Shown piece by piece: positions 7,445-29,135 of a stretch of 31,172 nt of DNA (its first letter is position 1; each line of letters begins with the position of its first letter). The notes beneath the pieces are model-generated. The model was not told the origin of the DNA. It saw only the letters and a list, made by a program, of their open reading frames with translations, and searched no databases. Source of the stretch: a virus; IMG/VR virus record IMGVR_UViG_3300029319_000288, positions 1 to 31,172 of that record. The stretch is one strand, 5' to 3'. Position numbers and translations under genes: made by a program.

Positions 7445-7794
7445 TGGAATCAGCTGTTACTTTAATTCAAGAGGTTGGGTTTCCTATTGCTGCTGCATTA
7501 GGACTTGGTTGGTTTATTTACAAACTTATTATGCGTATTGTTGATGGTATGGAAACTAAATTAGATACTGTTGATGAAAAAGTAGAAGGACAAATAGCAG
7601 CATTAGAAGAAAGACTTGGCACAAAACTTGATTCTCAACATGGTATTTTGGTAGCATTAATAGATAGAATAAGAAGTCTTGATAATGAAATAATAAGACA
7701 AGACACTTTAATTAAAACTATTTTAGGAATACCACAACTTATAGATAGCAATAAAATAGCAAAGGCAAATAGAGATGACCAAAGAAAAGATTGA
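7444..7794 (+). CDS. Small membrane protein with N-terminal helix and coiled coil; holin-like candidate, 116 aa
   Basis: Residues 8-30 (IQEVGFPIAAALGLGWFIYK) form one membrane helix, followed by a long charged coiled coil with VALIDRIRSLDNEIIRQDTL, a C-terminal layout I associate with small phage membrane proteins near holin genes. It has no cleavable signal, so it is probably N-out/C-in in the inner membrane. It overlaps csgF by 20 bases. It may be a BhlA-type holin-like protein, an anti-holin or a partner of the curli-like genes; position alone cannot decide. Another holin candidate and a true 3TM holin lie at 12.5-13.2 kb. Confidence 0.6.
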   Translation: MESAVTLIQEVGFPIAAALGLGWFIYKLIMRIVDGMETKLDTVDEKVEGQIAALEERLGTKLDSQHGILVALIDRIRSLDNEIIRQDTLIKTILGIPQLIDSNKIAKANRDDQRKD

Positions 7795-8275
7795 TACACA
7801 CGAAGTAGAAAAATATAGAATTATTATAAGTGTTTTATTCATAGGATTAATTTTATTTTTTGGTATATTAGCTATAAATATAAAAGCTGATGAAATGGTT
7901 TTTAAATTTAAAAATCCTAGTTTTAGTGGAGTAGGAACATCAGCACATTATCTTACAATAGAAAATCAAGAGTTTAATCGTAAAGAAGCACTTAGAGCTG
8001 AAATAAAAGCTTTACAGGAACAAATAGAAAGAGATAAAGAAAATACAACATTAGCTAGATTTATAAGAAATTTAGAATCAAGAATTTATGCACAACTATC
8101 AAGACAACTTGTAGAAAATTTATTTGGTGAAACACCAAGCACAGAAGGTACTCTAACATTAGAGGGAAATACAATTACATACAAAGTTGTTGATGGGATA
8201 ATAACACTAACTATAACGGACCAAGATGGAAATATTACAACGATTTCTTTGCCTGTCGGTAATTTTACTTTCTAG
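7775..8275 (+). CDS. csgF: CsgF homologue, curli secretion accessory protein, 166 aa
   Basis: In Escherichia coli, CsgF plugs into the CsgG pore through its N-terminal peptide and links the exported curli subunits to the cell surface. Here residues 16-36 are hydrophobic and cleavage is plausible after Ala38. The mature start VFKFKNPSF at 42-50 matches the conserved F-x-F-x-N-P-x-F of CsgF. It continues with HYLTIENQEFNRK, like the E. coli region after NPNFGG. The C-terminal beta region VDGIITLTITDQDGNITTIS parallels the E. coli end with its TDRKTGQTSTIQV. It is longer than the roughly 138-residue E. coli protein because of a 13-residue polar start and a central helix rich in Glu/Arg. Its last 50 bases overlap csgG, which is transcribed from the same strand. 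Confidence 0.85.
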   Translation: MTKEKIDTHEVEKYRIIISVLFIGLILFFGILAINIKADEMVFKFKNPSFSGVGTSAHYLTIENQEFNRKEALRAEIKALQEQIERDKENTTLARFIRNLESRIYAQLSRQLVENLFGETPSTEGTLTLEGNTITYKVVDGIITLTITDQDGNITTISLPVGNFTF

Positions 8276-9080
8276 CTGTGCTGTATTAAATGAAAATAGA
8301 GATTTAGCATTAACACAACATATTGAATCTAGTGCAATATTAAATTTACAATCAGAAGAACTTAAAAATTTATCTCCTGCAAAAATAAAACCCTCTGTAG
8401 CTGTATATCCAAATAGTTTTAGAGACTTAACAGGACAAAGAAAAAGTAATAGTTCTTTTGCTTTATTTAGTACTGCTATAACACAAGCTCCAGAAGCTTT
8501 TTTAATTAGAGCATTAAAACACGCAGCAGATGGAAAATTTTTTACAGTAGTTGAAAGAGTTGGTTTAGACAACTTAACTAAAGAAAGACAGTTAATAAGA
8601 AGCACAAGACAAGAGTTTAAAGAAGATAATAAGATGCAACCCTTATTATTTGCTGGACTAATCATAGAAGGTGGAGTGATTAGCTATGAAGCTAATCTTA
8701 AATCTGGAGGATTAGGTGCTAGATATTTAGGAATAGGTACTAGCAAACAATATAGAGAAGATACAGTAACTATATCATTAAGATTAGTTTCAGTATCTAC
8801 TGGAGAAGTATTAATAGAAACTTTAGTATCTAAAAGTATTGTCTCTACAAACATATCGCAAGATATTTTTCGTTTTATTGAAGCTGGAACAGAATTAGTA
8901 GAAGTTGAAGGCGGTATTGCAGAAAATGAAAGCGTTTCTATAGCTTTGCAAAAAGCAGTAGAAACAGGTATTTTAAATATAATTTATACAGGAATTGAGA
9001 GAGGTTACTGGGAATATGATGAAATTAAAATTAATGAGCCTAATTGTGATGCTGAGTGCATTAACAATATACGGGGCTGA
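8226..9080 (+). CDS. csgG: CsgG homologue, curli outer-membrane secretion channel lipoprotein, 284 aa
   Basis: CsgG forms a nonameric outer-membrane pore that exports curli subunits. The signal peptide ends in the lipobox L-S-S-C, with Cys18 as the lipidated residue. Family landmarks follow in order: VAVYPNSFRDLTGQ (58-71), the FSTAITQAPEAFLIRALKH segment, FFTVVERVGLDNLTKERQ, IIEGGVISYEANLKSGGLGA then RYLGIGTSKQY, VTISLRLVSVSTGEVL, and VETGILNIIYTGIERGYWE. Length is close to E. coli CsgG (277). The pore-constriction segment KSNSSFALFSTA keeps the Phe before STA (E. coli F56) but replaces N55 by Leu and Y51 by a polar residue, with one extra residue. The signal-peptide codons lie inside csgF, and the non-conserved 20-residue tail overlaps the next gene's signal peptide. 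Confidence 0.92.
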   Translation: MEILQRFLCLSVILLSSCAVLNENRDLALTQHIESSAILNLQSEELKNLSPAKIKPSVAVYPNSFRDLTGQRKSNSSFALFSTAITQAPEAFLIRALKHAADGKFFTVVERVGLDNLTKERQLIRSTRQEFKEDNKMQPLLFAGLIIEGGVISYEANLKSGGLGARYLGIGTSKQYREDTVTISLRLVSVSTGEVLIETLVSKSIVSTNISQDIFRFIEAGTELVEVEGGIAENESVSIALQKAVETGILNIIYTGIERGYWEYDEIKINEPNCDAECINNIRG

Positions 9081-9732
9081 TAATGAAATATATGTTGACC
9101 AATCAGGTGCAACAGCAAATATAGATTTAGAACAACTAGGAAATTCTAATATTATAGGCGGATTAAATTCTGTAGCTGGAACATTAACAGCATTAGACTT
9201 AGATGGTTTAAATCTTACATTAGACATTAATCAAATAGGTAATAGTAATAAATTTCTTGGAGATATTTATGGAGATAGTATTACAGGATTTTTTGAATTT
9301 GATGGAGATAGTAATACATTTACAATTCAAGGCGACCCAACAGATACTTATGGCATTGATAGTTCTAATTACAATGTAGATATAACAGGTAATTCTAATA
9401 CTTTTACTTTAGATACAGGTACATCTGCATTAGCAGCTACATTAGATTTAGATTGGATTATACAAGGCGATAGCAACACATTTGATTTTGATATTAATTA
9501 TGATGGTGCAACTAACTATGTAGATGTAGATGGAGATAGCAATACAGTAAACTTTACAGGAAGTGGATATGCAGGTGGATATTTCTATCTTGACCAAACA
9601 GGAAATAGCAGAACATTTAATGTTACACAAAGTTCAACATTGGTTTCAGATTGGCTTAAAATTACATCTATTGGCAATAGTGGTACTGTGTGCGTTGTTC
9701 AAAACGACCAAGGTACAAGCACAAGCTGTTGA
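9016..9732 (+). CDS. Secreted curlin-like repeat protein, candidate substrate of the CsgG pore, 238 aa
   Basis: I use ATG 9016 (or 9019) because it gives a clean signal peptide, MMKLKLMSLIVMLSALTIYG, with cleavage after Ala21; an upstream TTG is unlikely. The mature protein is acidic, low in Lys/Arg and built from eight units with G-(N/D)-S-(N/R/G), starting at about 9139, 9238, 9302, 9388, 9468, 9530, 9598 and 9670. The first two read QLGNSN and QIGNSN, matching the Q-x-G-x-x-N strand-turn of curlin repeats; later units keep GxSN-T-F but drift at Gln. This predicts a beta-solenoid like CsgA/CsgB, longer and more irregular. Two Cys occur near the end (223 and 238). Adjacent to csgG it is the obvious exported cargo, but whether it forms amyloid is inference. 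Confidence 0.72.
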   Translation: MMKLKLMSLIVMLSALTIYGADNEIYVDQSGATANIDLEQLGNSNIIGGLNSVAGTLTALDLDGLNLTLDINQIGNSNKFLGDIYGDSITGFFEFDGDSNTFTIQGDPTDTYGIDSSNYNVDITGNSNTFTLDTGTSALAATLDLDWIIQGDSNTFDFDINYDGATNYVDVDGDSNTVNFTGSGYAGGYFYLDQTGNSRTFNVTQSSTLVSDWLKITSIGNSGTVCVVQNDQGTSTSC

Positions 9733-10759
9733 TATTGGAGATATATCTGAACTAAATGGTTCAGCACAAATAGTAAGAGACAAGCCTTACGAAGCTAATT
9801 TACAGTTTGCAATACAAAGTAATGATGAAGCTATAACTACTAATGGTAGAATGGCTATTACATTTCTTGATGATTCTACTGTAAAACTTACAGAACATTC
9901 ACAATTAGTAATTGATGAATATATTTATGACCCAGACCCAAGTAAAGCAAAAATGGCTCTTACTTTTGGGCTTGGTACAGCTAGATTTATTACGGGTAAT
10001 CTTAATCGTATAGATAAACAAAACATAGAATTAAAAACACCAACTGCAAATATAGCTATACGAGGAACTGATTTTACGGCTACAGTTGATGAACTAGGGC
10101 GTAGCCTTATAATTTTGCTACCTGATGCTTTAGGACTTTCTAGTGGCGAAATAGAAGTAGTTACAGCTATGGGAACAGTAATATTAAATAAACCCTATGA
10201 AGCAACTACAGTTAGTGTATTTGAGTCTGCTCCAACTAAACCTGTTATATTAGATTTATCTTTAGACATTATTGACAATATGTTAATTGTTACACCCCCT
10301 AAAGAAGAAAATGTAATAGAAGAAGAAAGCACGACTTCACAAACAGATAGTGTATTAGATTTTAACGATTTAGATATAGATTATCTTGCAGAAGATTATC
10401 TTAAAGAAGATAGTTTAGAGTTTACAGAATTAGATATTAATTATTTAGATGTAAATTTTTTAGAAGATTTATTAAATGTTCTTGATGAATTAGATATACA
10501 AGAAGAAGAAGACCAGTTAGCCGAAGCAACATCAACACAAATTGTTGGAACTTTGTTAGGTAAAGACCCTGATACACAAATTACAACTTTAATACAAGGA
10601 GATGTAATTACATTACAAAGAAGTGTAAGTGAAAGTGTAAAATTAAATATTAATACAAGTGGCTCATATACAGTTATTTTTATACAAGATGGTATATCTA
10701 ATATTGTAAAAATTAATGGTGGTGGAGATTCTGTAATAACTATAAGACAGAGTGATTAA
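9620..10759 (+). CDS. Secreted FecR-domain protein with acidic linker and curlin-like C-terminus, 379 aa
   Basis: The ATG at 9620 gives a signal peptide with core LKLHLLAIVVLCALF and cleavage after VQAQA (mature from base 9728); upstream in-frame ATGs at 9563 and 9569 would only lengthen it. Residues about 40-190 match the FecR domain: DISELNGSAQIVRD, ITTNGRMAITFLDDSTVKLT, LTFGLGTARFITGNLNR, then IELKTPTANIAIRGTDFTA. FecR domains usually sit in the periplasm and relay envelope signals. Residues about 230-305 are extremely acidic with repeated LDI(D/N)YL-type units. The end carries IQDGISNIVKINGGG, matching the curlin Q-x-G-x-x-N motif. There is no membrane helix or sigma-factor partner. It directly abuts the CHASE2-cyclase start, a pairing also seen in bacterial genomes (recollection). 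It may sense or nucleate the exported fibre. Confidence 0.8.
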   Translation: MLHKVQHWFQIGLKLHLLAIVVLCALFKTTKVQAQAVDIGDISELNGSAQIVRDKPYEANLQFAIQSNDEAITTNGRMAITFLDDSTVKLTEHSQLVIDEYIYDPDPSKAKMALTFGLGTARFITGNLNRIDKQNIELKTPTANIAIRGTDFTATVDELGRSLIILLPDALGLSSGEIEVVTAMGTVILNKPYEATTVSVFESAPTKPVILDLSLDIIDNMLIVTPPKEENVIEEESTTSQTDSVLDFNDLDIDYLAEDYLKEDSLEFTELDINYLDVNFLEDLLNVLDELDIQEEEDQLAEATSTQIVGTLLGKDPDTQITTLIQGDVITLQRSVSESVKLNINTSGSYTVIFIQDGISNIVKINGGGDSVITIRQSD

Positions 10760-12517
10760 ATGAAGAAACTAATATTACCTATACTTATATTGCTTAGTTT
10801 ACCTTTATTATTTCAAAGCACACCTACTGAAATAATTAAATTAAAAACATTTGATGCTTTAATAAAAACTCCAGAGCCATCAGGTAATTTTGTAATACTT
10901 AATATTACAGAAGAAGATGTAGAACGAGAAGGTGGCTATCCATTACCCAGACAAAGATTAGCAGAAATACAATTAGATATTATAGGTAAAGGTGCTTTAG
11001 GTGTAGGCTGGGTTATATCTTTTCCACAAGCAGATAGAATGGGAGGTGATGAAAGTTTTGCAAGGTCTTTAGGTTATGCACCATCTGTTATAGCTATGTT
11101 TGAAGATGGTAAAGGTAATTACCCTAAACCAACTGGAACAGTTATATTTGGAGAAAATAATGGTGGTATAATTTCTATGGGAGTGAAGGAAAACCTGCCG
11201 TTACTATCCTCCAATTCACTAGAAGGTTTAGCCGTTGCTCCCGTTGATGTTGACCAATTAGTAAGAAGAATACCTTTATTAGTTAAAACACCTGATGACG
11301 AATGGATTCCTAGTTTTGGAACACAAATATACAAAGCTTTATTTAATGTAAAAACTTATATTATAAAAACTAATGATAATGGTATATCAGAAATATCAAT
11401 AAAAGGAATACCACCAGTTAAAACAGATAGTCTTGGTCGTAAGTGGATTAGTTGGGTTGATACGCCACAGACAAATTTACAAGAAATGAATGTAAATGGT
11501 AAGTTTGTTTTTATAGGTGTTACTGCTAACGGAGTAATGCCACAGATTGCTACTCCAGTTGGATTATTAGAACCACATAAAATACAAACAGCATTAGCAG
11601 AAAGCATATTAATAGAAAATAGTCCTTACATACCTGACTGGGCAATAAGTATTAACTTGTTAATATTTATAGTAAGCGTTTTTATTGTTTGGTTTGTACT
11701 TTTTTATTTTGGAATAACATGGGGAATAGTATTAAGTTTATTATCTATGTTTATTACAGGTAGTATTGGATATTACTTTATACAAAAAGGTTTATTAATA
11801 GATGTTACTTGGAGTTTAATATCTCAATTTATAACAGGTAGCATAGCTTTTTATTTAAGATTTAGAGAGCAATATAAATTAAGACAACAAATTAAAAAAC
11901 AATTTGAACATTACTTAGACCCAAGACAAGTAAAACAATTACAAGATAATCCAGAATTATTAAAACTAGGTGGAGAAAGAAAGTATTGTACTTTTCTTTT
12001 TACAGATGTAAGAGGTTTTACAAGTTTATCAGAAAAGTTAGAGCCAGAAAAAGTTACAGAAATTATGAACAAAGCTTTAACTATACAAGCTGATGCAGTT
12101 AAAAAGTATGGTGGTATGGTAGATAAGTACATTGGAGATGCCATGATGGCAATATTTAATGCTCCAATAAATATAGATATGCATGAAGATAGAGCTATAC
12201 TTACAGCTATAGAAATTAAAAAACAAATGCAAGAAGCTAACCTTGATATTAAAATAGGTATAGGTATAAATAGCGGAGATGCTGTTATTGGAAACATGGG
12301 TTCTAAAACTAGATTTGATTATACAGCTATAGGAGATGCAGTAAATTTAGCAGCAAGAATGGAAAGCAGTTGTAAAGAAGTAGGAAAAGATATAGTAATA
12401 GCAAAAAATACTGCAAAAGAAACAGATATTAAATTAGAAAAATTAAAACCAATAAAAGTAAAAGGAAAAGAAAAGGCAATAGAAATTTATACTATACAAG
12501 GAAATGAATATGGATAG
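10760..12517 (+). CDS. CHASE2-domain class III adenylate cyclase, membrane sensor, 585 aa
   Basis: Signal-anchor helix at 1-20, then an extracytoplasmic CHASE2 domain (about 25-290) with FVILNITEEDVEREGGYPLP, the ALGVGWVISFPQAD strand, a V-D-V-D-Q-L-V-R-R-I-P-L-L motif and GKFVFIGVTANG. Three membrane helices follow (about 294-367). The cytoplasmic class III cyclase domain (about 410-580) has both metal aspartates, Asp416 in FTDVRGF and Asp460 in YIGDAMMAIF, the substrate pair Lys456/Thr522 typical of bacterial adenylate cyclases, and the transition-state residues Asn529 and Arg533 in GDAVNLAARME. All catalytic positions are intact, so ATP-to-cAMP activity is expected. The ATG abuts the FecR gene stop in the same frame. 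A phage-borne, envelope-sensing cyclase is unusual. Confidence 0.93.
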   Translation: MKKLILPILILLSLPLLFQSTPTEIIKLKTFDALIKTPEPSGNFVILNITEEDVEREGGYPLPRQRLAEIQLDIIGKGALGVGWVISFPQADRMGGDESFARSLGYAPSVIAMFEDGKGNYPKPTGTVIFGENNGGIISMGVKENLPLLSSNSLEGLAVAPVDVDQLVRRIPLLVKTPDDEWIPSFGTQIYKALFNVKTYIIKTNDNGISEISIKGIPPVKTDSLGRKWISWVDTPQTNLQEMNVNGKFVFIGVTANGVMPQIATPVGLLEPHKIQTALAESILIENSPYIPDWAISINLLIFIVSVFIVWFVLFYFGITWGIVLSLLSMFITGSIGYYFIQKGLLIDVTWSLISQFITGSIAFYLRFREQYKLRQQIKKQFEHYLDPRQVKQLQDNPELLKLGGERKYCTFLFTDVRGFTSLSEKLEPEKVTEIMNKALTIQADAVKKYGGMVDKYIGDAMMAIFNAPINIDMHEDRAILTAIEIKKQMQEANLDIKIGIGINSGDAVIGNMGSKTRFDYTAIGDAVNLAARMESSCKEVGKDIVIAKNTAKETDIKLEKLKPIKVKGKEKAIEIYTIQGNEYG

Positions 12518-18481: not shown

Positions 18482-18963
18482 GTAATGTAGTTAAAATAAA
18501 AGAAAACAATAACAACACTTACAAAGTAAATAATAATTATATTGTTACTTTAGTTCCTCATCATTACATGGGAACTATTTGGAATGATGTAGAAAAATAT
18601 TTACAAAAAGCAGTTAAAAGGTCTAAGGGTAGATGGACTATAGACTATTTAAAAAATGCTATTAAAAAAGCAGAACAAGAACTTTGGGTAATTTTTACAG
18701 AAGAAAATAATGAAATAATTGGTGCAGCCACTACTGAATTTGTTTACTATCCAAATAGTAAAAAAGTTGCAGTGCAATATTTAGGTGGAGAAAATTTACC
18801 TGACTGGGCATGGAATTATTTAACAACAGTAGAAGCTTGGGCTAAAGATAATAAATGTGATGGTATAGAGTGTACAGCTAGATTTGGTATGTGGAAATGG
18901 CTAGGCAAATCTGGTTGGGAAAAATCTTATACAATTTTTGAAAAGAGGTTTAACAATGGGTAA
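18478..18963 (+). CDS. GNAT-like N-acetyltransferase of phage type, 161 aa
   Basis: The layout fits a GNAT fold: an N-terminal strand and helix (TIWNDVEKYLQKAVKRS), ELWVIFTEENNEIIGAATTE as the central beta hairpin, the VAVQYLGGENLPDW strand, then LTTVEAWAKDNKCDGIECTA and GWEKSYTIFEKRF as the final alpha/beta. The classical acetyl-CoA loop (Q/RxxGxG/A) is not obvious, so activity is uncertain. Similar proteins lie among ejection genes of marine phages (recollection). It overlaps the 808-aa gene by 4 bases and the next gene by 8. A target could be a virion or host protein. Confidence 0.6.
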   Translation: MSNVVKIKENNNNTYKVNNNYIVTLVPHHYMGTIWNDVEKYLQKAVKRSKGRWTIDYLKNAIKKAEQELWVIFTEENNEIIGAATTEFVYYPNSKKVAVQYLGGENLPDWAWNYLTTVEAWAKDNKCDGIECTARFGMWKWLGKSGWEKSYTIFEKRFNNG

Positions 18964-19870
18964 AGGAAGAAGTAAAGGAAGCAGTGCTCCACAACAAACA
19001 GAAGTAACACAAACAACTACTAATCTACCAGAATATGCACAGCCATACTTTACTAGATTATTAGGTAGAACTGAGTATGAGTCTTTAAATCCGTATAGAA
19101 CTTATACTGGTCAAAGATTAGCGGAAAGAAGTCCATTAGCTGAACAAGTAGCAGCAAGACAAACTGCTTTAGGATTAGCAGGTGCTCCAAGAGAAATGGC
19201 AGAAGCATCACAATTAGCTAGAACAAGTGTGGTTAATCCACAAAGATTTGATACTGGAATAGCTAGTATGTATATGAATCCTTTTCAAAGATTAGTTACA
19301 GATGTAGAAAAACGAGAAGCACAAAGAGCATCTGACATATCAGGAGAACAAATAGAATCAAGAGCAGCACAATCAGGTGGTTTAGGTGGTTATCGTGAAG
19401 CTATACTACAAGCAGAACGAGAAAGAAACTTAGGACAACGATTAGGCGATATAGAAGCTAGAGGACAAAGAGATGCTTTTTCACAAGCACAACAACAGTT
19501 TGAAAGAGATAGAGCTAATCAATTAAATGCTGCAAGACAACAATTAGCATCTGCAGAATTTTTAGGTAGACAAGGTCCTATGCAACAACAATTAGCTTTT
19601 GATAGATTAAAACAAGCACAACAAGCACAAGAAATAGGTAGAAATTTTGAACAAGCTGGATTAGATATGGCTTACAAAGATTTCTTAAATCAAATAGCTT
19701 ATCCAAGACAACAGTTAGGTTTTTATGGACAAATACTACAAGGTTTACCTGTAACACCGGGAACCCAAGTTTCACAATATGCACCAACACCAACAGGTAC
19801 ACAACAGCTGTTAGGTCTTGGTTTAGGTGGACTAGGTTTATACAGAGCTTTACAAGGTGGAATGGGTTAA
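18956..19870 (+). CDS. Gln/Ala-rich virion protein, probable internal/ejection protein, 304 aa
   Basis: ATG 18956 is chosen because AAAGAGG lies 8 bases upstream; an earlier TTG is less likely. The start (GKGRSKGSSAPQQTEVTQTT followed by LPEYAQPYFTRLLGRTEYES) is a recurrent marine-phage motif. The body is a long Gln/Arg/Ala-rich helix (REAILQAERERNLGQRLGDI, then QAQQQFERDRANQLNAARQQ) and the end is Gly/Leu-rich (QQLLGLGLGGLGLYRALQGG), which could insert in a membrane. Likely an internal virion protein. No enzyme motif seen. Confidence 0.7.
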   Translation: MGKGRSKGSSAPQQTEVTQTTTNLPEYAQPYFTRLLGRTEYESLNPYRTYTGQRLAERSPLAEQVAARQTALGLAGAPREMAEASQLARTSVVNPQRFDTGIASMYMNPFQRLVTDVEKREAQRASDISGEQIESRAAQSGGLGGYREAILQAERERNLGQRLGDIEARGQRDAFSQAQQQFERDRANQLNAARQQLASAEFLGRQGPMQQQLAFDRLKQAQQAQEIGRNFEQAGLDMAYKDFLNQIAYPRQQLGFYGQILQGLPVTPGTQVSQYAPTPTGTQQLLGLGLGGLGLYRALQGGMG

Positions 19871-19891: not shown

Positions 19892-21148
19892 ATGAATATA
19901 ATACAACTAGAAGATAATTTAAAAAGCTTACCAGATAATAGCTTACAAAAAGAAATGACCAACCCTAGTGGTATGTTCCCGCAGTATTTAGTTATGTCTG
20001 AAATACAAAGAAGAGAAGATATGCGTAAAGATTATGAAGGTCGTATGGCAGCTAATGAAAAAACCCCACCACTCCCATCAATGCGTGAAGAAATGTTGAT
20101 GGGTATAACTCAACCACAACCCCCTGTGCAGGACAGCGGCATAGCAGGATTACTACCAGCTCAACCACAAGGAGCACCCATACCACCAGCTATGTCCGCT
20201 AGTCCTGATGTTATGCCTATGTATGGTGGCGGAGTTGTAGGTATGGCTCCCGGTACAGAAGTGCCTGATTTATTTGGTTTGACTACAGATGAATTAAAAT
20301 TTGCTGGTTTATATGACGACCCAGATACACCAGAAGATGAAAGAATAACAGGTTATGAAAAAACAATAATGGATTATTATGCAACTTTACAAAAAGAACA
20401 ACCTGAAAAAATAGAACAAGAAAGAAAATTTGGAGAAGGTTTAAACCTTATGAAAGCAGGTCTTACACTAGGAACAGCAGCAACTTTTAAAGATTTAAGT
20501 AAAGGACTAGAAAAAACTATAGATAGTATAGATGCAAGTAATAGAGCTATATCTAAAAAAGAAGATGATTTGAAAAAATCTAAACTAGAAGAAGCAAAAG
20601 CTATGGCTGGTATTGAAGCTGTAAGAGATAAAAAATTAATAGACTTATCTAAATTAAAAAGTGAAAAACAATCTAAACAAGCTTTAGCTGATTATTATAA
20701 ATCTATGGACCCTAATCTGAAAAAAGCTAATATAGAATTAATAGCTGAATATTTAAAAAATTCAGATAAAGAATCACAAACATTACCAATTTATGATATA
20801 AACGAATCTGGAGACAAAGTTGTAAATAGACAAAAATTATTAGAATTTGCTAATCAATTCCAGACATCAGGATATGCAGCTGATATTAGACAAGAAACTA
20901 AAATATTAGAAGAATTTAATACTACTGTTTCAGAAGAATTAAGCAGTGCATCTACAATACTAGAAATATTTGACATGGCTAAAGAAGATGGTATATCAAT
21001 AGAAGATGCAAGAGAAAGAGTTAAATTAAGAATAGAAGCAGATGTAGCTAAAAGATTAGGTATTTCTATACAACCAAAATATTCTGGTGGTGTTGTTGGT
21101 AAATCTGCTCAAAGTTTTAATGATGTGGTAAAAACCATCAATGCCTAA
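19892..21148 (+). CDS. Virion protein of a conserved marine-phage family, 418 aa
   Basis: Opens NIIQLEDNLKSLPDNSLQKE, then MTNPSGMFPQYLVMSEIQRRED, a motif shared by many marine-phage late proteins. A Pro-rich stretch (about 55-105) holds SMREEMLMG and MYGGGVVGMAPGTEVPD; the rest is charged coiled coil (LEKTIDSIDASNRAISKKED). The last 30 residues repeat a GGVV element (YSGGVVGKSAQSF). It ends 8 bases into the giant polyvalent gene, so both are probably co-translated and co-packaged. Likely an ejected or scaffold-like protein; function not established. Confidence 0.7.
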   Translation: MNIIQLEDNLKSLPDNSLQKEMTNPSGMFPQYLVMSEIQRREDMRKDYEGRMAANEKTPPLPSMREEMLMGITQPQPPVQDSGIAGLLPAQPQGAPIPPAMSASPDVMPMYGGGVVGMAPGTEVPDLFGLTTDELKFAGLYDDPDTPEDERITGYEKTIMDYYATLQKEQPEKIEQERKFGEGLNLMKAGLTLGTAATFKDLSKGLEKTIDSIDASNRAISKKEDDLKKSKLEEAKAMAGIEAVRDKKLIDLSKLKSEKQSKQALADYYKSMDPNLKKANIELIAEYLKNSDKESQTLPIYDINESGDKVVNRQKLLEFANQFQTSGYAADIRQETKILEEFNTTVSEELSSASTILEIFDMAKEDGISIEDARERVKLRIEADVAKRLGISIQPKYSGGVVGKSAQSFNDVVKTINA

Positions 21149-24100
21149 GTTTGTTGAAACACCTGATGGAATAATACACCAGTTACCTGATAGTGTAACT
21201 GACGAAAACTATTTAGAAGAAAAAGAAAAGTTTTTAGCTAACTATAGAATATCCCAACCCCAAGAAGATTTCCCTTCAATAATCCAACCTGAACCTCAAC
21301 CCGAACCTCAACTTGAATCTGAAACTTCAGATACATTTAGTCCTTTTCGTTTTCAATCTGTACCGGAAGCTGCAGGAAATTTTTTACAAGGTTTTGATAT
21401 AGCACGACAATATGCGAAAGCAAAAAGAGGTTATACCGAAGAAGATTTAGATAGAAGTAGTATTAGATTACAAACAAGAGGTTCTTTTTCAAAGTTATTT
21501 AAAGAGCAAGATGCTACATATAAAAGATTCAATTTACTACAAAGAAAAGCAGAACTAGAAAATGAAAGATTAGAAATTTTATCTAAAGATATTTTAACTA
21601 CAGAAGATAAAAATAGATTACTTGAAATAGATTCTATATTTAAAGGAAAAAAATTTGAGTCAGAAGAAGAAAGATTAAAAGCTGAAGAACTATATAAAAT
21701 AGGAGTAGATACAGGAGATGTTCTACCATATGAAGACATAGAAGCTTACCAAGATAATATATATCAAAATATAGGATTAGACAAAGCTTTAGAAATAGAA
21801 ACAGAAATAAGAGATAGGTCTATAGAGTTTCAATCAGGTATAAAATATTCTAAAAGTTTTGAAGATTTAGCTCGTGCTTCATCTTTTGATGAATCTATGG
21901 AGATATTTTTATCTGACCCATTAAGTTTAATGGGACAAGTATTAGCTTCAAGTTCAGCACCAATGACTGTAAGTTTAACTGCTGGTATTGGTACAACTTT
22001 ATTAACTCGTAATCCATATGCAGGTGCATTAGCAACAGGTACTGCTTCTGGTTCAGTTGATGCAGTTTATTCTTTTACAGATTATATGCAAAAACAAGGT
22101 GTTGATATATACAACGATGATGAGGTTGTAAAATTTTTACAAGACCCAGAAAAAGTAGCAGCTGCTAAAAAATATGCAAGAACAAGAGCAACATTTATAG
22201 GTGCTTTTGATACATTATCTTTTGGTTTTGGTTCTAAGATAATAGCACCCGTTAGATTAGGCTCTGCTTCTAATAGAGCATTATTTAATTCAATAGTAGT
22301 TCAACCACCATTACAAGCAACATTAGGTGCATCAGGAGAATACTTTGCTCAATTAGCTACTTTAGAAGAAGGGGAAACAATACGAGTTGGTGAAGTATTT
22401 ATGGAAGGTATAGGAGAATTAGCTTTTGCTCCTGTAGAAACAACATTAGCCCAAGCAGGTACACGATTTGCAGATTACAAAAACATACAAAGAGAAGCTG
22501 CACAAAAACAACAAGAAAGATTTAATAATTTTAAAACAAATTATGCAAATTTAACTGAAGAACAAAAAAGAAATTTTGATATAAAGTTTGAAGAAACTTA
22601 TGAAACAATACAAAACAATAATCCAGACAAATCTACAAATGAAATACTTGATTTAACTTTAAAGGAAGTTGGAATAACAGATGAAATTCTTGAAGCTCAA
22701 AAAATTATTGAAGAAAATCCACTAGAAAATTTAGCATATAATGAAACTGGAACAAGAAATGAAACTGCAGTTGTTCCAAATCAAAATGGAACTTTTGATG
22801 TTATAACCGGAGATACAAGTCAACCTAATAATTTTAGAGTTCTTCGTACTTATGATAATGTTGAAAGAGCAGCAAAGGTTTCACAAGAATTAAACTTTGA
22901 TATAAATACATATGTAAATAGACAAACATTTGAACAAGATGCGGTAATGCAAAATTTAGACATTACTAATCCATTTGTAGAATCTTATGCAAATAACAGT
23001 TTAAATACTGTGCTTGATGGAATAACTTTTGGAAACATAGAAGATGCAGGAGTTTCTCCAGAAACTATAGCTCTTTTAAAAGATATAGCACAAAATAATT
23101 ACTATATATCTCCTGAAGTTTTAAAAGCAAACTTATCTAAAAAAGAATTTGATGCAGTCATGCGAATAAAAGCAGACACATTAAATGCTAAACCTAAAAA
23201 GTCTATATCAAGTACAGCGTTTAATACTTTATTAAATAATAAAAATGTTGAAAGTAATATTAATTCAGATAGTTTTAAAAGATTTGCACTTCAATTTACT
23301 GGGGAACAAGATGTAAATAAAATGAGCATAGCTCAAAAAAGAGTATTGTTTACTTTATTAGAAAACTTACCAGCTTCTCCAGACAAAATAAATTTACCAG
23401 ATTTTACTCCTAGAAGTTTTAATGTTGATGATTATAACAAAGCAAAAGCAGAAATAGAAAAGCAAGGTAAAGCTACATTAAAAATAATACAAGAAGCAAC
23501 AGGTTTAAATAAAGTATCTGCAAAAAGAATAATGGAGTACTTTGTTACTGCTGGTTATGTTAATAAAAAAGGTAATAAGTTTGAGTTTGTTGGAACAGAA
23601 AATCAAATCTATAACATAGATGGTACTCGTAGATTAACTTCAGATATTGAAATAAATAAAGATATTGAAAATGTTAAACAAACACTTGTTAATGACACAA
23701 CAATAAATCCAAATGTTCGTTCAAAAGTAGCAACTTTTTTAGATGAATTAACAGACCCTAATATTATTGACAGAGCAGGTGGTAGTTATAATCCTATATT
23801 TAATGAAATACTTTATACAGTAGATAAAGCAGATTTAAACTTACTAGACAAAAAATCAGACCAATATAATCCAAAAGAATTTTTAGCTACATATGCTAGG
23901 TTACAAGGACATGAAAACTTTCATGCATTAATTCAAGCAGGGTTATTTACACAACAAGAAATAGATGCACTTACAAATTATGCAACTAATAAAAAAATAA
24001 GTTCTAAGCTAGAAAAAGCATTACAAAGAAAATTTAATACACAAGAAAAATATTCTGATAAAACATATCTTAAATTTGCAACTGAACAATATACAGGTGT

Positions 24101-27100
24101 AGAAGGATATGAAAGTCCTGTAGATATATTAGAAGAAGGTATGGCTTTAGTATTTGAAGACTATATAACAACCAATGCAAAAATTACTGGCAGACCAAGA
24201 ACAACTTTACAAAAAGTATCTAACTTTGGAAAAGCTGTAGGTAATGCTTTAGTTAATAATGGATTTCTTACAGTAGAAAATATTGTTGATAAAACATTAC
24301 AAGGAAAAATAGCAGATAGAAATAGAGGTGTATCAAATAGAATTAAAAATACAACCACATTATTTAATTTACCCGAACAAAAAGATGTAATTGTAGCTGA
24401 TGAACCAAGTGTTAAATTTTCTTTAAGAGAAACAAATGCTAGATTAACTGATAACACTAAAGAAAGGTTAGAACAAGAGTCGGGTGCACCTACATTAGAA
24501 GGACATTTTAGACAGTTATATGGAAGTATTCCATCAATACCGCCACCTATAAAAGATTTTTTAAGAGATGCCAAAGGAGAAGGTTCAGAATATATAGCAC
24601 CATTATTAGATATGGGTCCTACTGCTTTTGTACAAAATAGAGTAAAAGATTCTAAAACACAAACAGGTTATTATCCTTTTGAATATCCAAAAGACTTAAC
24701 TGTAAATCAAGCACAACAAATTTTTGATGGCATAAATAGAGTAACTAAAGAATCTATAGCATTATTTCCTGATGAAGTAATGGTATATAGAGGTAGCCGT
24801 ATAGATGATAGTTTTAATTTAATACCTGTAACTACCAATAAATATATAGCAGAAATGTTTGGAAAAAACCAAGAAAGAAGACAGGAAAATGTAGAAGCTT
24901 TTTATTTTTCAGAACGATTAAATGAACAAGGTATAAGTTTACAACAGTTTGCACAAGATATAGAAAATCTTACAGCAAATCCAAGAGATGTGGCTAAGTA
25001 TGGATATGATGTTAAAAGATTTATTTTACCCAAAGATTCTATTGTAGCTAATATGGAAGCTTTATATGCTGGTGAATCAATGTTAGGTGGTATGTTTGGA
25101 GATAGATACAATTATAAAGGAGAACAAGAGTTTTTAGTTCCTAGAGAATTGTTAATAGATGACTTTGGCAATACTACAGGCAGACAAGTTTTAACAGCTC
25201 ATCTTTCAGAATACAGTAAAATTAAAAGAGAAAGAATGAGAATAGCAAAAGAGTTTGAAACTTTAACATCTGGTGTATTTGGCATACCTGAAAATTTAGT
25301 AACAACTTTAACACCAGAACAAGTTATAGAAGAAAGAAAAAATTTAATTAAATTAGCTAAGTCTCCACAATATCAAAAACAAAATATAGCTTATGAAGAT
25401 TTATATGCTTTAGTTACACACCCAGCTATGATAGCTACACAAATAGAAGCTTTAAATATTCTTGATGTTTATGACAATTTAACTCTAGCACAAATAAATC
25501 AAAGAATAGATGATATGCGACCAGAGTTAATTAATACAGCTGGAAAATATGCAGGTGGTGGAGAAAATGTAAAACAAAATAGAAAAGCAGTTATAGTAAT
25601 TGGACCACCGGCTACAGGTAAATCAACATTTGCTGAAGACATAGCTGCAAGAGAAGGCTATGCAATAATTGATTCTGATGATGCTAAAAAAATAATGCCT
25701 GAATTTAATAATGGTATAGGTGCTAATGCTACACATAAATTTTCTAAAATAGTTTCTAGTAGAATTGCACAAGAACTTATAGACCAAGGTTTTAATGTAA
25801 TACTTCCAAAAGTTACTGGCAAATCAGATTTTCGTCAACAACCAGACCAAACAAAGTTAAATGATTTAATTTTAAGTATAGAAGATTTACAAAGTAAAGG
25901 ATATAAAGTAGATGTTGTTTATCCAGATGCAAACATTAATCAAGCATTAGTAAGAGCAGTTACTAGATTTGGTGAAACAGGAAGATTTGTAAATATAGAT
26001 TATTTATTGACAATAGATAATAAAGTAAGAGACACTTATAATGCATTAAAAGAACATTTTAACGCTGATACTACAGATGATGTAGGATTTACCTACATTA
26101 ATAATAACTTTAAATTAGGAGAGCACATTGTCGAAGAAGATACCGCCCAACTATTTCAAGACGATAGAATCGTTGATAGAGATAGAGGTAGAAGCAGAAA
26201 ATATAGCCAAAGAAATGCACAAAAAATCACCCAAGAGGAATCCGCCCTTATCGGAATTGCTGAAGAGCAAAAACAAAACTCAATAGCAGCAGGTGTAACA
26301 CCTGTAATAAATACTAACGCTGACCCAAAAGCTGTAGCTTCAGCAGTAAAAGCACAACAAGAAATTAAAAATAGTACATCTGAAAATAATACAGATGTAG
26401 ATTCTATTATTTCTGATATACCAAATAATATTAAATTAAAATATTCATTTAATAAAAATAATAATCCTTTAAATAAAAATGCTGAAGAGTTAATAGAAAA
26501 TTTAACAGTAAGAGATGACACGATTGAAAGCAAAACAACCGGTCAGCTTATATTAGAGGGTTTTAAATCTGTTGACCCTTTAGCAACTAGAGAAGCTTTT
26601 ATAGACCAATATGCAAGATTAGCAGAAACAGATTACAAAGCAGGTAGAAAAAATAAATATGGAGATAAAACTTTACTTGCTAGTATGTCAGCAGGTGCAG
26701 CTTTATATTTTTCTGACAGGTCAGGAGATATATTTCAACAATCATTTTTAAGAGGTGTTCCTGTATATGATAAAAATAAAGGATACACTTATGTAACTGA
26801 TATATCTCCTATAGATAATCAACCAATAGTTCCATACTTTGAAGTATTTAAACCTGCTTTTAAAAATCCTAATTTACTTTGGGCTTTTCAAGCAGTACAA
26901 AGAGTTAAAAGAGAAACAAGGTTTAATAAAGAAGGTAGAAAAGTAAAAGTAACAGCAGCCGATAGAAAAAGAGCTAAACAAGCTTTAAAAGATTATCCTG
27001 AATTACAAACTATGATAGATAGTTATAACAGAACTAATGAACATACAGTTCAATTCTTAGTTGATACAGGTGTATTAGATGAAAAAACAGGTAAAGAGTG

Positions 27101-29135
27101 GTTAGCAAATTCAGATTACATTCCTTTTTATAGACCGCTAGAAGGAATGGAAGGATTTAAAGGACCAAAAATATTTCAAGGTTTATCCATAACTCCATTT
27201 CAAAGAGCAAAAGGTAGTGAAGAAAAAGATATTGTTGACCCTATTACTGGCATTACAAATAATTTAAGAGCAGCTATAAATGTAGGTATGAAAAATATAG
27301 CAGCTAATAGAGTAATGCGTAACATGATTGACATGGGCGTAGCTAAAAAAGTTAAAGGTAATGTTAAAGGACCAGACATTGTTACCATAAGAGTTAAAGG
27401 AAAAAATGTAAATTACAAAGTAGATGACCCATTACTATTTAATTCTTTTGTAATGATGAATAAGTCAGATAACTTTTTACCACAAAGTTTATTTATGAAT
27501 ATACTTAGACTTGGTAAAAGAGCTGTTAGTGATTTAATAACAAGAGTTCCTGATTTTTGGTTTAGACAAATAGTAAGAGACTCTGCTTCAGCTTCTGTTT
27601 TAAGTGGTGCTAATTATGTTCCAGTATTTTCCTCTATTAAAGAAAGTTTTAGCATAGCCAAAGGAATGATTACCGGCAGACTTCCAGATGAGTTTGTTAA
27701 ATTAAGAAATGCAGGAGTTATAACAGGATACGATAAAGGCGTAAGAGATATAGATACTACTGAAAAACTTATAAATAACTTATATAAAAACGCTTTTAAA
27801 AAAGAACGACCAACAGCAAAAAAAGTATTAATGTTTCCTATAGATTTAATAACTACTATATGGGACATAATGGGACAAGGCACAGCTATAACAGATGCTG
27901 CTACTAGAGTTGCTGTATATAAAGATACATTAAAAAGAACAGGCAACGAAGCTGAAGCAATCTTTCAAGCATTAGAAGTTTTAAACTTTACAAGGCGTGG
28001 CAATAACGAGTTCTTTCAATTATACGCACAGTCAACTATGTTTTTAAATCCTAGACTACAAGGACTAGATGTTTTTTATAGAGGACTAACAGGAAGATAT
28101 GGTATAGGCAGAGGTTTATCAAGAAGCAAAAGATTAAAGTCTGTGTTAATGAGAGTTGCTGCTATGTCTTCTTTATCAGTATATTACTATTTATTAGCAA
28201 GAGATTCAGAAGAATATGAAGAAGCCCCTGAACAAATTAAAGATAACTATTTAATTATTCCGGGCAGTAAAAAATTAACTGGACAAGTAGTAGCTATACC
28301 TAAACCTTTTGAAGTAGGGCTACTTACCATGACTGTTCCCGAAAGACTTACAGCTTACTTTATGGACGATATAGCAGGTCAAGATGTTTCAGATAGTTTA
28401 AGAAGAAACATAGGACATACTCTTTCTTTAACATTACCAACGGCTGTTGACCCTATTGTAGAAAATTATTTTAATTATGATTTTTTTACTAAGAGACAAA
28501 TAGTTCCTGATTACTTAGAGGGAACAGGAGACTTAGCATACAGACCAACGACAGATACATTGTCTAAAAAAATAGGAGATGAGTTAAACATGAGTCCTCT
28601 TTATATAGAAAATTTATTTAGAAGTTATAGTGGAACACTAGGCTCTTGGATAATGATGCTAACAGATAGTTTAATTAGAGAGGGTTTAACAGATGCAGAG
28701 AGAGTAAAATATGGACTCGACCAACTTCCTGTTGTAGGAACTTTTCTTTTACCCGCAGAGGGAAGCAATTTTGAAAATCAATTCTATAGTTTAAAAAAAG
28801 ATGTTGACGATTTAATTAAAACATTTAGACAAATAGAAACTGGTATTGAAGATAAAGGCGATATAACTTATTTGTTAGGTATGACTGATGAATATAAAAT
28901 TGAGTACATGGATACATTAAAAGATTTACAAATTGACCTAACAAAAACAGCCGACCAACTTAAAGAATTTAGAAACATAGAAGCACAAATAGTCAACAGT
29001 ACAACTCTTAGTTCAGCAGAAAAGAAAGCTCAACTTGATAATATAAGAGCTGTTAAAAATGAATTGTTAAAAGGTTATCCAGAATTACGCAAAATTTATT
29101 TAGAAGAAATAAAAGAAAGAGCTGTAGTAAGATAA
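21141..29135 (+). CDS. Giant polyvalent virion protein: zincin, ART-like, zeta-toxin-like kinase, LPD38-like, 2,664 aa
   Basis: One unbroken frame. Residues about 255-380 form a hydrophobic Gly/Ala/Ser region. A winged-helix-like segment lies at 770-820. A zinc metallopeptidase-type HENFH is at 924-928, with Glu998/Glu999 in DILEEGMALVFEDY as possible third ligand. An ADP-ribosyltransferase-like domain shows Arg1217 in VMVYRGSR, Thr1231-Thr1232 and the E-x-E pair Glu1328/Glu1330 in KGEQEFLVP. A zeta-toxin-like P-loop kinase has GPPATGKS at 1488-1495 and DSDDAKK from 1511. From about 1820 to 2640 the sequence resembles large polyvalent protein domain 38. Proteins of this kind are carried in the head and injected with DNA. 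Whether any domain is active is unknown. The ATG overlaps the preceding stop by 8 bases. Confidence 0.88.
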   Translation: MPKFVETPDGIIHQLPDSVTDENYLEEKEKFLANYRISQPQEDFPSIIQPEPQPEPQLESETSDTFSPFRFQSVPEAAGNFLQGFDIARQYAKAKRGYTEEDLDRSSIRLQTRGSFSKLFKEQDATYKRFNLLQRKAELENERLEILSKDILTTEDKNRLLEIDSIFKGKKFESEEERLKAEELYKIGVDTGDVLPYEDIEAYQDNIYQNIGLDKALEIETEIRDRSIEFQSGIKYSKSFEDLARASSFDESMEIFLSDPLSLMGQVLASSSAPMTVSLTAGIGTTLLTRNPYAGALATGTASGSVDAVYSFTDYMQKQGVDIYNDDEVVKFLQDPEKVAAAKKYARTRATFIGAFDTLSFGFGSKIIAPVRLGSASNRALFNSIVVQPPLQATLGASGEYFAQLATLEEGETIRVGEVFMEGIGELAFAPVETTLAQAGTRFADYKNIQREAAQKQQERFNNFKTNYANLTEEQKRNFDIKFEETYETIQNNNPDKSTNEILDLTLKEVGITDEILEAQKIIEENPLENLAYNETGTRNETAVVPNQNGTFDVITGDTSQPNNFRVLRTYDNVERAAKVSQELNFDINTYVNRQTFEQDAVMQNLDITNPFVESYANNSLNTVLDGITFGNIEDAGVSPETIALLKDIAQNNYYISPEVLKANLSKKEFDAVMRIKADTLNAKPKKSISSTAFNTLLNNKNVESNINSDSFKRFALQFTGEQDVNKMSIAQKRVLFTLLENLPASPDKINLPDFTPRSFNVDDYNKAKAEIEKQGKATLKIIQEATGLNKVSAKRIMEYFVTAGYVNKKGNKFEFVGTENQIYNIDGTRRLTSDIEINKDIENVKQTLVNDTTINPNVRSKVATFLDELTDPNIIDRAGGSYNPIFNEILYTVDKADLNLLDKKSDQYNPKEFLATYARLQGHENFHALIQAGLFTQQEIDALTNYATNKKISSKLEKALQRKFNTQEKYSDKTYLKFATEQYTGVEGYESPVDILEEGMALVFEDYITTNAKITGRPRTTLQKVSNFGKAVGNALVNNGFLTVENIVDKTLQGKIADRNRGVSNRIKNTTTLFNLPEQKDVIVADEPSVKFSLRETNARLTDNTKERLEQESGAPTLEGHFRQLYGSIPSIPPPIKDFLRDAKGEGSEYIAPLLDMGPTAFVQNRVKDSKTQTGYYPFEYPKDLTVNQAQQIFDGINRVTKESIALFPDEVMVYRGSRIDDSFNLIPVTTNKYIAEMFGKNQERRQENVEAFYFSERLNEQGISLQQFAQDIENLTANPRDVAKYGYDVKRFILPKDSIVANMEALYAGESMLGGMFGDRYNYKGEQEFLVPRELLIDDFGNTTGRQVLTAHLSEYSKIKRERMRIAKEFETLTSGVFGIPENLVTTLTPEQVIEERKNLIKLAKSPQYQKQNIAYEDLYALVTHPAMIATQIEALNILDVYDNLTLAQINQRIDDMRPELINTAGKYAGGGENVKQNRKAVIVIGPPATGKSTFAEDIAAREGYAIIDSDDAKKIMPEFNNGIGANATHKFSKIVSSRIAQELIDQGFNVILPKVTGKSDFRQQPDQTKLNDLILSIEDLQSKGYKVDVVYPDANINQALVRAVTRFGETGRFVNIDYLLTIDNKVRDTYNALKEHFNADTTDDVGFTYINNNFKLGEHIVEEDTAQLFQDDRIVDRDRGRSRKYSQRNAQKITQEESALIGIAEEQKQNSIAAGVTPVINTNADPKAVASAVKAQQEIKNSTSENNTDVDSIISDIPNNIKLKYSFNKNNNPLNKNAEELIENLTVRDDTIESKTTGQLILEGFKSVDPLATREAFIDQYARLAETDYKAGRKNKYGDKTLLASMSAGAALYFSDRSGDIFQQSFLRGVPVYDKNKGYTYVTDISPIDNQPIVPYFEVFKPAFKNPNLLWAFQAVQRVKRETRFNKEGRKVKVTAADRKRAKQALKDYPELQTMIDSYNRTNEHTVQFLVDTGVLDEKTGKEWLANSDYIPFYRPLEGMEGFKGPKIFQGLSITPFQRAKGSEEKDIVDPITGITNNLRAAINVGMKNIAANRVMRNMIDMGVAKKVKGNVKGPDIVTIRVKGKNVNYKVDDPLLFNSFVMMNKSDNFLPQSLFMNILRLGKRAVSDLITRVPDFWFRQIVRDSASASVLSGANYVPVFSSIKESFSIAKGMITGRLPDEFVKLRNAGVITGYDKGVRDIDTTEKLINNLYKNAFKKERPTAKKVLMFPIDLITTIWDIMGQGTAITDAATRVAVYKDTLKRTGNEAEAIFQALEVLNFTRRGNNEFFQLYAQSTMFLNPRLQGLDVFYRGLTGRYGIGRGLSRSKRLKSVLMRVAAMSSLSVYYYLLARDSEEYEEAPEQIKDNYLIIPGSKKLTGQVVAIPKPFEVGLLTMTVPERLTAYFMDDIAGQDVSDSLRRNIGHTLSLTLPTAVDPIVENYFNYDFFTKRQIVPDYLEGTGDLAYRPTTDTLSKKIGDELNMSPLYIENLFRSYSGTLGSWIMMLTDSLIREGLTDAERVKYGLDQLPVVGTFLLPAEGSNFENQFYSLKKDVDDLIKTFRQIETGIEDKGDITYLLGMTDEYKIEYMDTLKDLQIDLTKTADQLKEFRNIEAQIVNSTTLSSAEKKAQLDNIRAVKNELLKGYPELRKIYLEEIKERAVVR

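What the first reader, a model, noticed from the sequence alone, without database searches (positions are those of the whole stretch)
21141..29135. 2,664-residue ejected protein with three possible effector domains
Seen: HENFH with downstream EEG, an ART-like R / TT / ExE set, a zeta-toxin-type P-loop (GPPATGKS, DSDDAKK) and an LPD38-like C-terminal region in one frame. Known: polyvalent proteins of this size are carried in virions and delivered with DNA. Inference: it may protect incoming DNA or disable the host, for example by protein cleavage, ADP-ribosylation and nucleotide-sugar phosphorylation. The kinase inside a virion protein, lacking an antitoxin gene nearby, is notable.
Basis: partly seen in the sequence, partly recalled or inferred. 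Interest (0 to 1): 0.75.

Follow-up and report, generated by a model that had tools for sequence, protein, structure and literature searches.

The report
Multi-enzyme marine phage polyvalent protein
A marine phage gene encodes one giant protein, probably carried in the virus particle, that joins a protease-like domain, a likely ADP-ribosyltransferase and a toxin-like kinase to a C-terminal part shared by hundreds of phages; giant multi-enzyme phage proteins are a known kind, but this combination was not found in any cultured phage.

Summary
The 2,664-residue ORF (21141-29135) and all four sequence marks are real. It is a phage-type "large polyvalent protein". LPD38 (E 3e-30) and a zeta-like P-loop kinase (E 2e-12) are profile-supported. 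The HExxH domain is a polyvalent-type zincin (profile-profile probability 99.7%). The third region keeps R1217, T1231 and E1328-x-E1330 in all 13 aligned members and probably is an ART. It is not the H-Y-D ART known from polyvalent proteins, and the canonical first Ser is an invariant Pro. Structure prediction was too weak to confirm either fold. I found 23 IMG/VR contigs with this architecture (5 without the ART) and none among 50,697 phage records. The C-terminal third occurs in at least 597 viral loci with other cargo and follows an ejection-protein gene, so delivery is likely but inferred.

Kinases fused to virion proteins have precedent.

New: a K-[YF]-S-L seam recurs at domain borders; the window lacks a ~278-residue module of its closest relative, exactly between two seams. 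A new variant of a known kind.

The parts
21141..29135 (+). whole polyvalent protein gene, 2,664 aa; start codon overlaps the end of the upstream gene by 8 bases
21141..21860 (+). residues 1-240, variable N-terminal region
   Evidence: 7-30% identity between members over much of it
21858..22520 (+). residues 240-460, Gly/Ala-rich weakly hydrophobic region conserved in the family; possible membrane-contacting part (inference)
   Evidence: 42-58% identity; no 19-residue window above Kyte-Doolittle 1.2 here in the window protein, but some in relatives; no match in the phages collection
23628..24332 (+). zincin-like metallopeptidase domain, residues 830-1064; HExxH at 23910-23924, E999 at 24135-24137
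   Evidence: invariant H924, E925, H928, E999; hhalign 99.7%, E 2e-26 to HExxHAL zincins of 11 other LPD38 polyvalent proteins
24411..24425 (+). seam motif VKFSL (residues 1091-1095); the place where relatives carry a further module of 200-320 residues
24582..25160 (+). putative ADP-ribosyltransferase domain (about residues 1148-1340): R1217, T1231, E1328-x-E1330
   Evidence: invariant catalytic-type residues in 13 sequences; predicted strand positions; hhalign to T4 ModA/ModB P 0.022
25533..26210 (+). zeta-like P-loop kinase domain (residues 1465-1690): K1494, D1513, R1609, R1615 kept; P1556 in place of zeta E116
   Evidence: Pfam E 2.1e-12; profile to 1gvn E 1.1e-8 and Pnkp1 E 3.5e-8; 28-sequence alignment
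26436..26450 (+). seam motif LKYSF (residues 1766-1770) before the C-terminal part
   Evidence: present in the 11 further complete or partial family members with this region that were scanned
26778..29132 (+). C-terminal chassis, residues 1880-2664, with LPD38 at 28209-28733
   Evidence: Pfam LPD38 3.4e-30; 59 phage records, most by this part; at least 597 viral loci; 65 BFVD fold matches at E <= 0.001
18938..19870 (+). neighbour: PHROG 4287 'DNA ejection protein', 310 aa
   Evidence: E 3.7e-11; profile match to MinM2 gene 23, E 2e-48
19892..21148 (+). neighbour: 418-aa protein, second member of the cassette shared with MinM2
   Evidence: profile match to MinM2 gene 24, E 1.3e-5

Best explanation
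It is a phage-type large polyvalent protein made late in infection, packaged in the virion and ejected with the DNA. The C-terminal 785 residues (LPD38 region) are the conserved virion/ejection chassis; the part in front is a bay of exchangeable cargo. In this family the cargo is a zincin, a probable ADP-ribosyltransferase and a zeta-like kinase. After ejection the ART would modify a host macromolecule with ADP-ribose, and the kinase would phosphorylate a host molecule that is not UDP-GlcNAc through the zeta-like site; the zincin would either cut the chain to free the cargo or cut host proteins. Shown here by sequence: the architecture, its conservation, the exchange and loss of modules, the intact Walker A / Asp / Arg kinase residues and HExxH-E zincin residues, the loss of the UNAG-site residues, the cassette with an ejection-protein gene. 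Inferred: packaging, ejection, every enzymatic activity, the targets, and autoprocessing.
For: LPD38 and zeta-like domain above curated cut-offs. Zincin homologous to those of other LPD38 polyvalent proteins. 23 IMG/VR contigs share the order zincin-(insert)-(ART)-kinase-LPD38; 18 have the ART. C-terminal part found in at least 597 viral loci, with other domains in front: RelA/SpoT, methylase, LT_GEWL, ART-PolyVal. Three-gene cassette ejection protein - 418 aa - LPD38 giant conserved with Synechococcus phage MinM2, where the giant is annotated RelA/SpoT. The LPD38 homologue PTXU04_00025 (25% identity over 700 residues) is required for infection in a published CRISPRi screen and is in a list of genes that were toxic on expression or interfered with infection (PMC11879866). 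Closest relative L015 has ~278 more residues exactly between two seam motifs that are one in the window.
Against: No virion proteomics was found for any LPD38 protein. AlphaFold models were weak (mean pLDDT 67.6 and 61.8) and Foldseek gave no zincin, ART or other PDB match for residues 814-1475. ART profile evidence is marginal. The requirement for PTXU04_00025 could be purely structural, since its cargo is different and has no HExxH. No sequence match to T7 internal core proteins gp14-gp16.
Confidence: 0.62

Rival explanations
1. The same protein, but the three enzyme-like domains are mainly remnants or binding modules; the giant is essential as a structural internal core / ejection protein and the cargo contributes little.
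For: The chassis is the most conserved part (50-90% identity) while the N-terminal 1,090 residues are at about 33%. Modules are freely lost: window without the insert, five contigs without the ART. First Ser of the ART motif is Pro in all members.
Against: Catalytic-type residues are exactly the invariant ones in the diverged cargo: H924, E925, H928, E999; R1217, E1328, E1330; K1494, D1513, R1609. Remnants would not keep these at 20-40% identity.
Confidence: 0.17
2. The kinase is a true zeta toxin that phosphorylates UDP-GlcNAc and blocks wall synthesis.
For: Pfam Zeta_toxin above cut-off; profile match to 1gvn E 1.1e-8 with K46, D67, R158 kept.
Against: E116 (essential for toxicity and ATPase, PMC6356619), T118 and R120 (UNAG phosphate contacts, PMC3062530) are Pro, Val and Gly here; the Pro is invariant in 28 homologues. 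The Pfam model is loose: it is over its cut-off in 13 of 14 control genomes. Pnkp1 polynucleotide kinase matches about equally well.
Confidence: 0.06
3. The region 1148-1340 is not an ART but an unrelated fold with a chance-like R / T / ExE series.
For: No Pfam, PDB or fold match; STS first Ser missing; profile comparison with ART-PolyVal gives nothing (P 0.3).
Against: Invariant VYRG, PxT(5x)AxxF and Y(4x)ExE in the order and partial spacing of ModA/ModB; hhalign independently pairs PVT..A..F and EQE with the ModA columns (P 0.022 against 0.37-0.77 for unrelated profiles; 1 of 150 shuffles as high); R1217 and E1328/E1330 fall at predicted strands.
Confidence: 0.25
4. A conjugation- or secretion-type toxin or an assembly artefact rather than a virion protein.
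For: The protein is not annotated in any cultured phage; window is a fragment.
Against: Open frame with the same architecture in many independent contigs, several of 55-59 kb; phage structural genes around.
Confidence: 0.02

Closest known systems
Phage-type large polyvalent proteins (Iyer et al. 2017, PMC5512222), LPD38 group
   Different: ART is not the H-Y-D type which that paper reports for polyvalent proteins; the main text places zeta-like kinases in conjugative-element proteins and MuF fusions, not with LPD38 and a zincin; full architecture in no phage record searched
PTXU04_00025 of Escherichia phage PTXU04 (PMC11879866)
   Same: LPD38 region, 25% identity over about 700 C-terminal residues, last gene of a rightward run
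   Different: 2,197 aa, no HExxH, no kinase; required for infection by CRISPRi
Synechococcus phage MinM2 / Planktothrix phage Pag-Yong1 giant protein
   Same: Best C-terminal match (27.7% over 688 residues) and the same cassette with the ejection-protein gene
   Different: Annotated RelA/SpoT; a weak ART-PolyVal stretch and other HExxH sites instead of ART-kinase
Zeta toxin of epsilon/zeta systems (1gvn)
   Same: P-loop kinase core, K46, D67 and R158 equivalents
   Different: E116, T118, R120 replaced; no antitoxin; fused in a giant virus protein
T4 Alt / ModA / ModB ART
   Same: R ... A..F ... ExE order; Alt is a head-packaged, ejected ART
   Different: Pro for the first Ser; profile similarity only marginal

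Membership tests
Phage-type large polyvalent protein | two or more unrelated enzymatic domains plus LPD/virion domains in one chain | tested here: met
   LPD38 and zeta-like kinase, zincin
Phage-type large polyvalent protein | encoded among late / virion genes | tested here: met
   virion structural, adaptor and ejection-protein genes upstream
Phage-type large polyvalent protein | carried in the virion and delivered with DNA | not testable with these tools
   no proteomics; inferred from cassette with ejection protein
Zincin-like metallopeptidase of polyvalent proteins | HExxH helix and downstream Glu helix, conserved | tested here: met
   invariant H924, E925, H928, E999; both in confident predicted helices
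Zincin-like metallopeptidase of polyvalent proteins | homology to other polyvalent zincins | tested here: met
   hhalign 99.7%, E 2e-26
Zincin-like metallopeptidase of polyvalent proteins | zincin fold with three-stranded sheet | tested here: inconclusive
   low-confidence model, sheet not predicted, no PDB fold match
ART, R-S-E class (Alt/ModA/ModB type) | Arg on first strand and ExE | tested here: met
   R1217, E1328, E1330 invariant
ART, R-S-E class (Alt/ModA/ModB type) | first Ser/Thr of the STS motif | tested here: not met
   Pro1229 in all 13 members by the hhalign register; T1231 pairs with the third position
ART, R-S-E class (Alt/ModA/ModB type) | ART fold | tested here: inconclusive
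ART-PolyVal (H-Y-D class, PF18760) | profile match / H-Y-D residues | tested here: not met
   no PF18760 match; hhalign P 0.3
Zeta toxin (UNAG kinase) | Walker A Lys, catalytic Asp67, Arg158 | tested here: met
   K1494, D1513, R1609
Zeta toxin (UNAG kinase) | E116, T118, R120 at the UNAG / metal site | tested here: not met
   P1556, V1558, G1560; Pro invariant in 28 sequences
Zeta toxin (UNAG kinase) | Arg171 | tested here: inconclusive
   outside the 1gvn alignment; R1615 of TGR is a candidate
Zeta toxin (UNAG kinase) | partner antitoxin gene | tested here: not met
   none recognised
T7-type internal core / ejection protein (gp14-gp16) | sequence homology | tested here: not met
   the four profiles of upstream neighbours found no T7 match; the giant itself was compared only through PHROG/Pfam

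The most novel reading that the evidence does not exclude
The protein is a delivered polyprotein punctuated by K-[YF]-S-[LF] seams: the resident zincin cuts at the seams to free an unusual ART and a kinase of new substrate after ejection, and the same seams serve as borders for swapping or losing cargo modules.
Probability: 0.2. Interest if true: 0.68.

Novelty: new variant of a known kind. Interest (0 to 1): 0.48.

Why it matters
Polyvalent proteins are predicted to disarm the host in the first minutes of infection, but targets and order of action are mostly unknown. This family gives a bounded set of about two dozen natural variants that differ by whole modules (with and without the ART, with and without the insert), an ART outside the type reported for these proteins, and a zeta-like kinase that has lost the UNAG site. 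Each is directly testable, and the seam motif makes the long-standing idea that the zincin processes these chains testable by mapping cuts.

Tried and rejected
AlphaFold of residues 814-1475 and 1874-2664 with 28 and 16 sequences gave weak models; PDB fold search of the first gave only noise and I draw no fold conclusion from it. PDB sequence search with ART, zincin and C-terminal profiles found no relative. The ART could not be linked to other ARTs through wider relatives: the A8 scan returned only the same family, and tblastn in phages nothing relevant. The N-terminal 240-460 region and the zincin have no tblastn match in phages. I first read the seam motif in other LPD38 proteins as a zincin-linked cut site (14 of 16 zincin proteins against 2 of 14 others, P 1.3e-4; 34 of 34 copies between zincin and chassis); this is confounded, because many of those copies are the tail 'NPDIRYSLR' of ART-PolyVal domains, and because the motif was defined on this family. 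The insert module was tested as a second ART and gave nothing convincing (P 0.46, 0.5 and 0.037). Homology of the upstream cassette to T7 gp12-gp16 or pelagiphage HTVC034P was tested and not found. One genome search failed on an argument.

Full report
Observation. The ORF at 21141-29135 (+) encodes 2,664 residues without an internal stop. HExxH alone would arise in 0.25% of shuffles of this protein. Pfam gives LPD38 at 3.4e-30 and Zeta_toxin at 2.1e-12, both over the curated cut-offs; the HExxH and ART regions have no confident Pfam, NCBIfam or PHROG match. The record is a 31,172-base virus record of IMG/VR; relatives on contigs of 55-59 kb suggest it is a fragment.

Family. Scans of viral contigs found 23 contigs with the same order of regions, 18 with and 5 without the ART. 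No record of 50,697 phages covers 80% of the protein; 59 match, the great majority by the C-terminal third only and eight by the kinase. In the family the C-terminal 785 residues are 50-90% identical to the window and the first 1,090 about 33%. In the diverged part the invariant residues are the catalytic-type ones: H924, E925, H928, E999 in 16 sequences, R1217, T1231, E1328, E1330 in 13, K1494, D1513, R1605, R1609, R1615 and P1556 in 28.

Zincin. A profile of the family's HExxH domain aligns with the HExxHAL domains of 11 other LPD38 polyvalent proteins at 99.7% probability, E 2e-26. The 2017 survey calls this the hub domain of polyvalent proteins and proposes that it processes the chain (PMC5512222). 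HExxH and E999 lie in confidently predicted helices, but the sheet was not predicted. Protease activity is inferred.

ART-like region. The region keeps VYRG, PxT(5x)AxxF and Y(4x)ExE. Its profile compared with T4 ModA/ModB gives P 0.022 with the PVT..A..F and EQE columns paired to the ModA ones; unrelated profiles give 0.37-0.77, reversed ModA 12.1 bits against 21.7, and 1 of 150 column shuffles reaches the score. It is unrelated to ART-PolyVal by the same test (P 0.3). In this register the first Ser of the STS motif is Pro1229 in every member, so a canonical R-S-E membership test is not met. [quoted passage not shown] I rate ART at about 0.75. The fold search was uninformative because the model is weak.

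Kinase. A profile of 28 kinase domains matches solved zeta toxin 1gvn at E 1.1e-8 and Pnkp1 at 3.5e-8. In the printed alignment K46, D67 and R158 of zeta are kept, whereas E116 falls on the invariant Pro1556, T118 on Val1558 and R120 on Gly1560. E116 is essential for toxicity and ATPase (PMC6356619); T118 and R120 contact UNAG phosphates (PMC3062530). A UNAG kinase is therefore unlikely; another acceptor is. The Pfam model is also loose: over its cut-off in 13 of 14 control genomes. The same kinase clade is fused to other virus proteins: a portal protein (L040), proteins of about 1,100 residues in marine contigs (L027-L037), cyanophage PSS2 minor head protein and haloviruses. So a zeta-like kinase on a virion protein without an antitoxin is an established pattern.

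Chassis and delivery. Its model, though weak, has 65 BFVD matches at E <= 0.001, over most of its length for the best ones, in proteins annotated RelA/SpoT, methylase, LT_GEWL or polyvalent. Upstream lie a PHROG 4287 'DNA ejection protein' (3.7e-11) and a 418-aa gene; both, with the giant, form a cassette shared with Synechococcus phage MinM2 (E 2e-48 and 1.3e-5). The LPD38 homologue of PTXU04 is required for infection and appears in a list of genes that were toxic on expression or interfered with infection (PMC11879866). No virion proteomics was found. Delivery is the best inference, not shown.

Seams. The string [LIVTP][KRQA][YF]S[LFVI] occurs 32 times against 3.5 expected in 14 family proteins, nearly always before the insert, before the ART or before the C-terminal part. 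Closest relative L015 has two such seams about 278 residues apart; the window has one, with the left flank of the first and the right flank of the second. This marks a module gained or lost exactly at seams. Outside the family the motif is also confined to the stretch between zincin and chassis, but many copies there are the tail of ART-PolyVal domains, so the link to the zincin is confounded.

Verdict. An ordinary kind of protein in an unreported combination: new variant of a known kind, interest 0.48.

Noticed in passing
7775-12517: CsgF (1e-20), CsgG (4e-49), FecR and a CHASE2 + class III cyclase gene in a row; the cyclase is 31-35% identical over 95% to those of pelagimyophage HTVC008M and methylophage Melnitz. 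Suggests a host among streamlined marine bacteria and cassette transfer into a phage with SU10-type adaptor genes.
   Followed up: partly
997-1689 and 2008-2649: Two adjacent genes both match SU10 adaptor protein (PF24175, E 3e-11 and 1e-23): a possible adaptor duplication.
   Followed up: no
87-761: 224-aa protein matching PHROG 3704 'ferredoxin' (6e-29) but no Pfam family.
   Followed up: no
L027:7628-10921, L040:8015-10615: The same zeta-like kinase clade sits at the C-terminal end of ~1,100-aa marine phage proteins and of a portal protein (PF06381 1e-76), each with the Pro in place of zeta E116 or its neighbours.
   Followed up: partly
L002:13104-14050 approx. and equivalents: Module of 200-320 residues between zincin and ART in relatives, absent in the window; no Pfam match, not convincingly an ART.
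   Followed up: partly
L113, L122, L126 and others: In other LPD38 polyvalent proteins ART-PolyVal copies mostly end in NPDIRYSLR-like tails; variants IRASLR, IRKSLR, IRLSLR also occur.
   Followed up: partly
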